From: Dehalococcoidales bacterium | GTDB lineage: Bacteria; Chloroflexota; Dehalococcoidia; Dehalococcoidales; Fen-1064 | Assembly (NCBI GenBank): GCA_035529395.1 | Contig: DATKWT010000018.1 | Span: 1 to 36,160 of the forward strand | Direction: 5' to 3' | Length of the DNA stretch: 36,160 nucleotides | Shown here: in pieces, positions 19,773-22,038 of the stretch | Numbering within the stretch: position 1 is the first letter of the stretch | How the letters are laid out: each line of letters begins with the position of its first letter | Translations under genes and position numbers: made by a program | The notes under the pieces: model-generated | Told to the model about the DNA's origin: nothing | Seen by the model: the letters and a program-made list of their open reading frames with translations, nothing else | Database searches by the model: none

Positions 19773-20375
19773 ATGTCAGCACTAACTGAGCTTAATGAGG
19801 AAATCGCTCACTGTAGCCTCTGCGAAATAGCCGTAGACCGTACCCGGGTAGTCCCCGGAGAGGGCGCAGAGGACGCTGACATACTCTTCATCGGCGAAGC
19901 GCCGGGCTGGCACGAAGACCAGCAGGGACGTCCCTTTGTCGGAGCGGCGGGCAAGTACCTTGACGAGTTGCTGGCCCTGGTGAACCTGAACCGCAGTCAG
20001 GTATTCATCGCTAACGTCATCAAATGCCGTCCACCGAGCAATCGCGACCCCCTCCCTATAGAAATTAATAACTGCTGCAAGTGGCTGGACCGCCAGATTG
20101 AGATAATCCGCCCCAGAATAATCGTAACCCTGGGTCGTTATTCGATGGCCAGGTTCTTTCCCGGTAAGTCAATAAGCAAGATACACGGTACCGTGCAGAA
20201 GTGGAATGACATCACCTGCTACGCCATGTACCATCCTGCAGCGGCCCTCCACCAACAGAGTCTGCGCCGCACCATAGAGGAAGACATGAGCAAGCTGCCA
20301 TCGCTGCTAACCCAGACGGATAGCGTGCCGGAAGTCCAGCCCCAGCCACAGCAACTGAATATGTTTGAGGTCTGA
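19773..20375 (+). CDS. family 4 uracil-DNA glycosylase with 4Fe-4S cluster
   Basis: 200 residues. It removes uracil from DNA at the start of base excision repair. Cys14 and Cys17 (HCSLC), Cys85 (IKCRPP) and Cys101 or Cys102 (NNCCKW) match the cluster ligands of family 4 enzymes. Motif 1 is [17 protein letters not shown] (41-57) and the later motif is [10 protein letters not shown] (152-161). The C-terminal tail past residue 180 is extended and ends QLNMFEV; QLNMF (194-198) resembles the sliding-clamp binding pentapeptide QL(S/D)LF. SD is weak (GTAAGAT). It is the first gene of the udg-rnj-ftsK unit, with 4 nt between its stop and the next ATG. Confidence 0.94.
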
Positions 20376-20379
20376 CATC

Positions 20380-22038
20380 ATGGCACAACCACGGTTGAGA
20401 GTAATCCCCCTTGGCGGGCTGAGTGAAATCGGTAAGAACATGATGGTCCTGGAGTGCCAGGAAGACATCATTGTCATTGATGCCGGTCTCATGTTCCCCG
20501 AAGAAGGCATGCTCGGGGTAGACCTGGTTATCCCCGACATCAGTTACCTGCTGGAAAGGCGCGACAGGATAAAGGGTATGCTGGTCACTCACGGTCACGA
20601 GGACCACATCGGCGCGCTGCCCTATGTCCTGCCCCAGTTGGACGTACCCATCTACTGTACGCAGTTGACCCACGGTCTTATCTCCGTGAAACTCAAGGAG
20701 CGAAAGGCACTGGCTAAGGCCAGTCTCAATGTATTACCTCCCGGCGGGCGGGTCACGCTGGGATGTTTTCAGATTGAGTTCTTTCCCGTCTGCCACAGCA
20801 TCCCTGATGCAGTGGGCCTGATAATAAACACCCCGGTGGGCACCATAGTCCACAGCGGGGATTTCAAACTAGACTTCACGCCGGTGAGCGGCAACCCCAC
20901 CGACCTCTCCCGGCTGGCACAGGTCGGGCGGGAGGGCGTCCTGCTCTTGCTTTCCGATTCCACCTATGCCGAACTGCCCGGCTATACGCCATCGGAGAGG
21001 GTAGTCGGTGAAGCCCTGGACCACATCATGGCTGAGGCACCGGGGAGAGTAATCATCACCACCTTCTCCTCCCTGATATCACGTATCCAGCAGGTCATCG
21101 ACTCGGCAACCAAGTACGAGCGCCGTGTCTTCGTCGTGGGACGCAACATGACCAACATCGTTCACATGGCTATGGAGCTGGGCTATCTGAGAGCACCGGA
21201 CGGACTGCTGGGACGTCTCGACGAACTTAAAGATATGCCCCATGACAAAATCGTCTTCGTTACCACCGGGAGCCAGGGAGAGCCGACCTCCGCCCTCGTC
21301 CGCATAGCCAATCGGGACCACCACCAAATCCATATAGTCCCCGGGGACACTGTGGCTATTTCAGCTACACCCGTTCCCGGAAACGAGGCGCTGGTGGCCA
21401 AGACCATGGACAACCTTCTCCGGCAGGGCGCCAACGTGGTGTACAACAGCATGGCACCGGTACACGTCCACGGACACGCCAGCCAGGAAGAACTGAAGCT
21501 CATGTTGAACCTCGTGAGACCACAGTACTTCGTCCCGATACACGGTGAATACCGCCACCTGAGCCTCCACGCCAAACTGGCTGAGTCCATCGGTATTCCC
21601 AGGGAGAGTATCTTCCTTATGGACGACGGTGATGTCCTCGAGATAGGGCCGCAGATGGCGAAAGTAACCGGCAAGGTCTCCTCCAGCAACGTCTACGTGG
21701 ATGGCCTCAGTGTCGGTGACATTGGCACCGTTGTCCTGCGTGACCGGAAGATGCTCTCCAGGGATGGTATGGTGGTAGTGATTATTGCCATCAACCGGCA
21801 GACCGGAAAGCTGGTGGGGCGTCCCGATATCGTATCAAGGGGCTTCGTTGACACCAGGGAGGCCAAGGAAATGCTGGACGAGAGCCGTGACCTGGTGGCG
21901 CGCGTCCTGGACCGTGGTGGTGACCACCCGGCGCAGTGGAGTTTCGTCAACGTCAAGGTAAGGGATACATTGAACAAGTTCTATTATGAGCAGACCAAGC
22001 GCCGTCCGATGATTCTTCCCTTCATGGTCAAGGTCTAG
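20380..22038 (+). CDS. rnj: ribonuclease J
   Basis: 552 residues from ATG 20380, with GAGG 9 nt upstream inside the end of udg. The frame opens five codons earlier with TTG, which I reject because the ATG gives the family start. RNase J is a metallo-beta-lactamase/beta-CASP nuclease with endo- and 5'-exonuclease activity in mRNA decay and rRNA maturation. LGGLSEIGKNM is followed by the metal-binding HGHEDHIG (71-78). HSGDFKLDF, SDSTYAELPG, the beta-CASP segment TTFSSLISRIQQ, then TTGSQGEP and the HVHGHASQEEL block follow in family order. The C-terminal domain is full length. Confidence 0.96.
   Translation: MAQPRLRVIPLGGLSEIGKNMMVLECQEDIIVIDAGLMFPEEGMLGVDLVIPDISYLLERRDRIKGMLVTHGHEDHIGALPYVLPQLDVPIYCTQLTHGLISVKLKERKALAKASLNVLPPGGRVTLGCFQIEFFPVCHSIPDAVGLIINTPVGTIVHSGDFKLDFTPVSGNPTDLSRLAQVGREGVLLLLSDSTYAELPGYTPSERVVGEALDHIMAEAPGRVIITTFSSLISRIQQVIDSATKYERRVFVVGRNMTNIVHMAMELGYLRAPDGLLGRLDELKDMPHDKIVFVTTGSQGEPTSALVRIANRDHHQIHIVPGDTVAISATPVPGNEALVAKTMDNLLRQGANVVYNSMAPVHVHGHASQEELKLMLNLVRPQYFVPIHGEYRHLSLHAKLAESIGIPRESIFLMDDGDVLEIGPQMAKVTGKVSSSNVYVDGLSVGDIGTVVLRDRKMLSRDGMVVVIIAINRQTGKLVGRPDIVSRGFVDTREAKEMLDESRDLVARVLDRGGDHPAQWSFVNVKVRDTLNKFYYEQTKRRPMILPFMVKV

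What the first reader, a model, noticed from the sequence alone, without database searches (positions are those of the whole stretch)
20340..20375. UDG ends in a sliding-clamp binding motif
The last residues include QLNMF (194-198) at the end of a flexible Pro/Gln-rich tail. This fits the bacterial beta-clamp pentapeptide consensus QL(S/D)LF. It would tether uracil repair to replication forks, as PCNA binding does for nuclear UNG2 and some archaeal UDGs.
Basis: partly seen in the sequence, partly recalled or inferred. Interest (0 to 1): 0.5.

Follow-up and report, generated by a model that had tools for sequence, protein, structure and literature searches.

The report
Uracil-repair enzyme with sliding-clamp tail
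A bacterial enzyme that removes uracil from DNA ends in a short, strongly conserved tag that matches the signal used to dock onto the replication machine's sliding clamp, so uracil repair is probably tethered to DNA copying across much of this bacterial phylum.

Summary
[quoted passage not shown] residues 194-198 (20352-20366) are QLNMF, then EV and stop. This fits the published clamp-binding motif (CBM) Qφx[L/M][F/L] and ends an apparently disordered tail.

It is far above chance: 161 of 188 distinct sampled UDGs of the same phylum (Chloroflexota, inferred) carry the motif in their last 15 residues, against under 1 per 100 for shuffled tails, while the linker is hardly conserved and the codons vary. 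The motif is in 0 of 76 relatives from other phyla, 1 of 29 from a Bacillota phylum, 0 of 18 same-phylum UDG-superfamily paralogues and 0 of 5 archaeal UDGs. Deinococcota have another fixed ending (QEPLF-like, 29 of 29). The genome's DnaN keeps 15 of 23 checked cleft residues; its MutS has QIPLF and a DnaE the looser QTTMF.

Best explanation: the tail docks in DnaN and couples uracil excision to replication, as archaeal family-4 UDGs do with PCNA. Binding was not tested. The listings of eight literature searches showed no report of it in bacteria.

The parts
19773..20375 (+). Family-4 uracil-DNA glycosylase gene, 200 aa; Cys 14, 17, 85, 101 (Fe-S ligand pattern, role recalled), GEAPG 41-45, Asn90, His154
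   Evidence: TIGR00758 198.7 bits over cut-off 125.3, PF03167, nearest solved structure 4zbx; invariant columns of the 39-row alignment
20313..20351 (+). Codons 181-193: Pro/Gln-rich linker [13 protein letters not shown], predicted disordered
   Evidence: pLDDT 71 and 53 for residues 181-190 and 191-200; positions -20 to -6 of relatives have pairwise identity 0.10-0.29
20352..20366 (+). Codons 194-198: QLNMF, predicted DnaN (beta-clamp) binding motif
   Evidence: Fits Qφx[L/M][F/L] (PMC11139829); 161 of 188 phylum sequences; varied synonymous codons
20367..20375 (+). Glu-Val extension after the motif, and stop codon; many relatives stop right after the motif
   Evidence: Read from sequence and tails

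Best explanation
[quoted passage not shown] The Q-L-x-M-F peptide most likely inserts into the hydrophobic cleft of DnaN, tethering the enzyme to clamps on newly made DNA, so that uracil misincorporated from dUTP or met near the polymerase is excised close to the fork and handed to clamp-bound repair enzymes. Shown here: the motif, its conservation against a variable linker, its restriction to certain lineages in the samples taken, a largely kept DnaN cleft in the same genome, and a canonical motif in that genome's MutS with a looser one in a DnaE. Inferred: binding, affinity, fork recruitment and the benefit of it.
For: Motif meets the review's CBM definition; E. coli Pol V QLNLF, named there, differs by one residue. 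Conserved in 107 of 130 class members, 53 of 57 other distinct members of the phylum and 1 of 1 Thermoflexia. Canonical form in 0 of 76 relatives of other phyla, 0 of 18 same-phylum UDG-superfamily paralogues and 0 of 5 archaeal ones, and 1 of 29 in a Bacillota phylum. In 188 C-termini not selected on the motif, positions -5, -4, -2, -1 have pairwise identity 0.73, 0.49, 0.44, 0.52 against 0.10-0.29 for positions -20 to -6. Codons at the motif vary in 161 genes (position 2 uses all six Leu codons besides Met, Ile and Ala codons), so selection is on the protein. Tail predicted disordered and an addition: median 51 residues from HPx to the end against 33 in other phyla. DnaN keeps R152, L155, G174, R176, L177, F241, P242, N320, Y323, S345 and V360-M364 by E. 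coli numbering, 15 of 23 checked (the list is recalled, in part confirmed). Own MutS has QIPLF near its C-terminus, own DnaE QTTMF. Archaeal family-4 UDGs bind PCNA (PMC4894655 passages).
Against: No binding, docking or in vivo evidence. 27 of 188 phylum sequences lack the canonical form in the last 15 residues; most are near variants (QGRLF, QLSFF, QLKFF, QPSLF, QRALL, QLSMW), but L106, L110, L128, L129 and L130 have nothing similar. Six of the nine class genomes with matches that I did not fetch belong to the same genus as L130, so the class fraction may be overstated. Eight of 23 checked DnaN cleft residues differ: T172A, H175F, R246Q, V247L, F278S, V344S, S346P, R365Q. The own DnaE motif has Thr at position 2 and was found only with that position left free. 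A scan for gene ends with the motif found 3 places in the genome against 5 for the reversed control pattern, so such endings alone are not diagnostic.
Confidence: 0.87

Rival explanations
1. The terminal peptide is a conserved docking tag, but for another partner (for example a different replication or repair protein), not for DnaN.
For: Only sequence has been examined; tail endings with Gln and hydrophobics could serve other pockets. Deinococcota have another fixed ending, QEPLF-like, 29 of 29, which does not meet the strict CBM form. Eight of 23 checked DnaN cleft residues differ from E. coli.
Against: The residues used at each position in the phylum (Q; L/M/I; any; L/M; F/L) are those of the CBM definition, and the same genome's MutS holds a canonical motif.
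Confidence: 0.08
2. The conservation is at DNA level, for example a ribosome-binding or regulatory site for the downstream RNase J-like gene, whose likely ATG is at 20380.
For: Four bases separate the UDG stop from that ATG, and a homologue of that gene is found beside the UDG in 13 of 30 near loci, the window included.
Against: Synonymous codons vary widely at the motif in 161 sequences; the neighbour is detected in fewer than half of the near loci (flanks are short, so some may be missed).
Confidence: 0.02
3. Chance: a Gln- and hydrophobic-rich tail that happens to match a short motif.
For: Five-residue motifs are common in proteomes; the scan of the genome for such gene ends showed no excess over its control.
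Against: 161 of 188 sequences against shuffle means of about 1-2; 0 of 76 in other phyla and 0 of 18 paralogues.
Confidence: 0.02

Closest known systems
Archaeal family-4 UDG bound to PCNA (Pyrobaculum aerophilum; Sulfolobus solfataricus PCNA3)
   Same: Same enzyme family, bound to the replication clamp (statement read in passages of PMC4894655; the primary papers were not read, one is not held)
   Different: Partner is PCNA; the tail here does not fit the PIP consensus Q-x-x-[LIM]-x-x-aromatic-aromatic quoted in PMC3950489 (passages) and instead fits the bacterial CBM
Nuclear UNG2 of mammals
   Same: Uracil glycosylase with a clamp-binding site in an unstructured tail (PMC9266487 passages)
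   Different: Family 1 enzyme (passage), N-terminal tail, PCNA partner
Bacterial beta-clamp clients with C-terminal CBMs (E. coli Pol II, Pol IV)
   Same: CBM in a C-terminal tail (PMC11139829 passages)
   Different: Those are polymerases; binding there is measured
Mycobacterium tuberculosis Nei2 and XthA
   Same: Bacterial base-excision enzymes reported to use the beta clamp (PMC9690074 passages)
   Different: Different enzymes; that review's table lists UNG2 for PCNA and no uracil glycosylase for the beta clamp

Membership tests
Family-4 uracil-DNA glycosylase | Curated profile above its cut-off | tested here: met
   TIGR00758 198.7 bits, cut-off 125.3
Family-4 uracil-DNA glycosylase | Four cysteines for the Fe-S cluster and the catalytic motifs | tested here: met
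   C14, C17, C85, C101, G41, E42, P44, G45, N90 and H154 invariant in a 39-row alignment. N90 and H154 line up with residues 89 and 155 of the Thermus chain; N89 and H155 are named as catalytic for a family-4 UDGa in the abstract start of PMC5387724. The role of the cysteines is recalled
Family-4 uracil-DNA glycosylase | Fold of solved members | tested here: met
   4zbx TM 0.86/0.90, 1ui0 0.85/0.89, 1vk2 0.84/0.88
Family-4 uracil-DNA glycosylase | Uracil excision activity | not testable with these tools
   Needs an enzyme assay
NCBIfam NF040953 archaeal type-4 UDG equivalog | Score above curated cut-off | tested here: not met
   212.4 bits, cut-off 250
Beta-clamp (DnaN) client with CBM | Peptide fits Qφx[L/M][F/L] | tested here: met
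   QLNMF; definition from PMC11139829
Beta-clamp (DnaN) client with CBM | Motif lies in a flexible region and is conserved | tested here: met
Beta-clamp (DnaN) client with CBM | Clamp of the same cell has the binding cleft | tested here: met
   15 of 23 checked cleft residues identical to E. coli, 8 differ; the list is mostly recalled, part of it is
Beta-clamp (DnaN) client with CBM | Direct binding lost on motif mutation | not testable with these tools
   No complex prediction offered; needs a binding assay
PCNA client with PIP box | Q-x-x-[LIM]-x-x-aromatic-aromatic | tested here: not met
   Tail is Q-L-N-M-F-E-V-end; consensus from PMC3950489

The most novel reading that the evidence does not exclude
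Family-4 UDGs have repeatedly and independently become clamp clients, with the tail written in whichever clamp's code the cell uses: PCNA in some archaea, a DnaN motif in most sampled Chloroflexota, a separate QEPLF-type ending in Deinococcota and sporadic endings (QLKLF, QMKIDF, QLSWDF) in a Bacillota phylum. Chloroflexota UDGs group next to archaeal ones in a weakly supported tree, so the tail may even mark a switch of clamp code after a transfer between domains.
Probability: 0.35. Interest if true: 0.66.

Novelty: new variant of a known kind. Interest (0 to 1): 0.5.

Why it matters
Clamp binding is reported for UNG2 and for archaeal family-4 UDGs with PCNA, but the listings of my searches showed no report of a bacterial uracil glycosylase tethered to the beta clamp. 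A motif kept in most sampled members of a phylum, on a linker that drifts freely, makes a specific, cheap prediction. If true, clamp-coupled uracil repair exists in all three domains, and the list of beta-clamp clients, which a 2024 review says may be incomplete (PMC11139829), gains a uracil-repair enzyme.

Tried and rejected
Chance match: rejected by shuffles, other phyla and paralogues. DNA-level conservation for the downstream gene: rejected by codon variety. PIP box: tail does not fit. Genome-wide scan for gene ends with the motif: uninformative, 3 hits against 5 for the control pattern, and it cannot see this gene because of the EV extension. Own Pol IV as a positive control: its frame is short (185 aa) and its C-terminus could not be judged. 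DnaE: no match to the first pattern, QTTMF found only with position 2 left free. Viral relatives: one distant locus, no motif. Phage records were listed and not examined further. Plasmid records: 2 fetched, Collinsella and Mycetohabitans UDGs, no motif. Tree: Chloroflexota form one cluster apart from one archaeal row inside it, but the branch has support of only 41, so the archaeal link is a lead, not a result. A UDG-DnaN complex could not be asked for, since the tool folds single, unchanged window or locus proteins.

Full report
What is there. The ORF at 19773-20375 (+) encodes 200 residues ending in [12 protein letters not shown]. [quoted passage not shown] nearest solved structure Sulfolobus tokodaii 4zbx. 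It stays below the cut-off of the archaeal equivalog model NF040953 (212.4 against 250). AlphaFold2 on a 39-row alignment gives mean pLDDT 93.3, with blocks of 95-98 through residue 180 and then 71 and 53 for residues 181-190 and 191-200; a four-residue helical turn is drawn at 195-198. So the core is compact and the last 20 residues are probably a flexible tail.

The motif. QLNMF is residues 194-198, bases 20352-20366. The definition in a 2024 review of the beta clamp (PMC11139829, passages read) is Qφx[L/M][F/L], with QLxLF the tightest form; E. coli Pol V uses QLNLF. QLNMF meets this. It is the only match to Q[LIMVA]x[LM][FL] in the 27 ORFs of 120 aa or more that I kept for the window.

Conservation inside the phylum. 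A search of 148 genomes of the class found a match in 139; I took one UDG from 130 of these. A search of 121 genomes of the phylum found matches in 117; I took 68 loci, of which 58 were not identical to the class set and 57 were distinct. The motif lies in the last 15 residues in 107 of 130, in 53 of 57 and, for a named Thermoflexia bacterium, in 1 of 1: 161 of 188. In an earlier count with a slightly wider pattern, 113 of 130 class tails matched and 98 of those ended exactly on the motif. Shuffling the last 25 residues gives means of 0.96 of 130 and 0.35 of 57. A looser Qxx[LMF][FLWM] is met by 123 of 130 and 57 of 57. Without selecting on the motif, pairwise identity over the 188 C-termini is 0.73, 0.49, 0.25, 0.44, 0.52 for the last five positions and 0.10-0.29 for the fifteen before. 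Codons at the five positions vary in 161 genes. This is protein-level selection on a short linear motif at the end of a drifting linker. The rows are related, so they are not 188 independent cases.

Exceptions. Twenty-seven of 188 lack the canonical form. Most are variants (QLSFF, QLKFF, QISFF, QGRLF, QGRLL, QPSLF, QRALL, QLSMW, QMSLW, QLKLI, QLRLM, QMSFL, QRSLF, QKTLF); L106, L110, L128, L129 and L130 have no such ending, and L065 has a shortened end. Nine class genomes with matches were not fetched (G002, G054, G065, G073, G088, G103, G117, G128, G144); six of them share a genus with L130, so losses in that genus are under-sampled. Many of the 117 matching phylum genomes were not fetched either (68 loci taken).

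Outside the phylum. Three are Deinococcota and one is Thermoflexia; 0 of the other 76 has the canonical motif. A wider penta-plus-hexamer pattern hits 2 of 75 (one frame-broken row, L257, dropped), neither at the end of a tail, against a shuffle maximum of 2. In a phylum reached from Caloramator (Bacillota, recalled), 46 of 61 genomes match; of 29 tails read, 1 has a canonical ending (QLKLF) and three have hexamer-like endings (QMKIDF, QLSWDF, QLTLGW). Five archaeal UDGs from the phylum of an Altiarchaeales record have none. Within the window's phylum, 18 of 20 fetched UDG-superfamily paralogues gave a closed matching frame, and 0 of 18 has the motif. The added tail also shows as length: median 51 residues from the HPx motif to the end, against 33 in other phyla.

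Deinococcota. In the phylum of a named Meiothermus record 41 of 41 genomes match, and 30 were given as loci. With the other loci of this phylum, 29 of 29 distinct sequences end in Qxx[LM][FL]: QEPLF, QESLF, QDPLF, QGTLF or QEPLL. Position 2 is Glu, Asp or Gly, so the strict CBM is not met (0 of 29), though the review notes that position 2 is tolerant and that E. coli DNA polymerase III alpha uses QADMF. I regard this as a candidate second lineage of clamp-bound UDG, not shown. Many of these sequences are close relatives.

The partner. The genome's DnaN aligned with E. coli DnaN keeps R152, L155, G174, R176, L177, F241, P242, N320, Y323, S345, V360, V361, M362, P363 and M364; T172A, H175F, R246Q, V247L, F278S, V344S, S346P and R365Q differ (15 of 23 kept). 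The list of cleft residues is mostly recalled; part of subsite I is named. The same genome's MutS has QIPLF 42 residues from its C-terminus, and one of its two DnaE proteins has QTTMF around residue 915. MutS and Pol III alpha are named as clamp partners.

Phylum. Match places coincide, and one search was centred on a genome holding a named Thermoflexia record, a class that NCBI places in Chloroflexota. So the window is very probably from Chloroflexota. That its class is Dehalococcoidia is a guess from small single-contig genomes in its order, not shown.

Mechanism. Shown: an enzyme core of known family, an added tail predicted flexible, a conserved CBM, a clamp with a largely kept cleft. Inferred: the tail docks in the DnaN cleft and brings uracil excision to newly replicated DNA. 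Archaeal family-4 UDGs bind PCNA in P. aerophilum and S. solfataricus (statement in PMC4894655, passages), and UNG2 has a PCNA site in its N-terminal tail (PMC9266487, passages). The tail here does not fit the PIP consensus (PMC3950489, passages). Because the clamp differs between the domains, the same enzyme family seems to use a different short code in each. A quick tree of 165 rows (the window and 70 other phylum rows drawn at random) puts Chloroflexota UDGs in one cluster beside archaeal ones, with one archaeal row inside and support of only 41; this is a lead only.

Literature. In those eight I saw listings of 20 of 49, 25 of 174, 8 of 8, 9 of 9, 10 of 26, 10 of 45, 8 of 828 and 15 of 24 papers, and by title and abstract start none of those listed was a report of a bacterial uracil glycosylase binding the beta clamp. 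The review PMC11139829 holds no word beginning with 'glycosylase', 'uracil' or 'UDG'; PMC9690074 names Nei2 and XthA as bacterial base-excision partners. The library holds open-licence papers only, so this absence is weak evidence.

Verdict. It is a new variant of a known kind: a uracil glycosylase predicted to be clamp-tethered, a trait of most sampled members of a bacterial phylum.

Noticed in passing
L309-L337, L207-L209 (Deinococcota UDG C-termini): All 29 distinct sampled family-4 UDGs of this phylum end in a fixed QEPLF-like peptide, a possible second, separate clamp-docking ending.
   Followed up: partly
L376, L394, L397, L374 (phylum of Caloramator): Sporadic UDG endings QLKLF, QMKIDF, QLSWDF, QLTLGW resemble penta- or hexameric clamp motifs.
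   Followed up: partly
window 20380-22038 (+): An RNase J-like gene (named from recall; no family search was run; likely ATG chosen by me) starts four bases after the UDG stop; a homologue is found beside the UDG in 13 of 30 near loci, the window included.
   Followed up: partly
L103 (phylum relative): This UDG tail holds an internal QLDMF besides a terminal QMSFL, as if it had two clamp motifs.
   Followed up: no
own genome DnaN, L001: His175 of the clamp cleft (E. coli numbering) is Phe and Arg246 is Gln, which may tune motif preference in this lineage.
   Followed up: no
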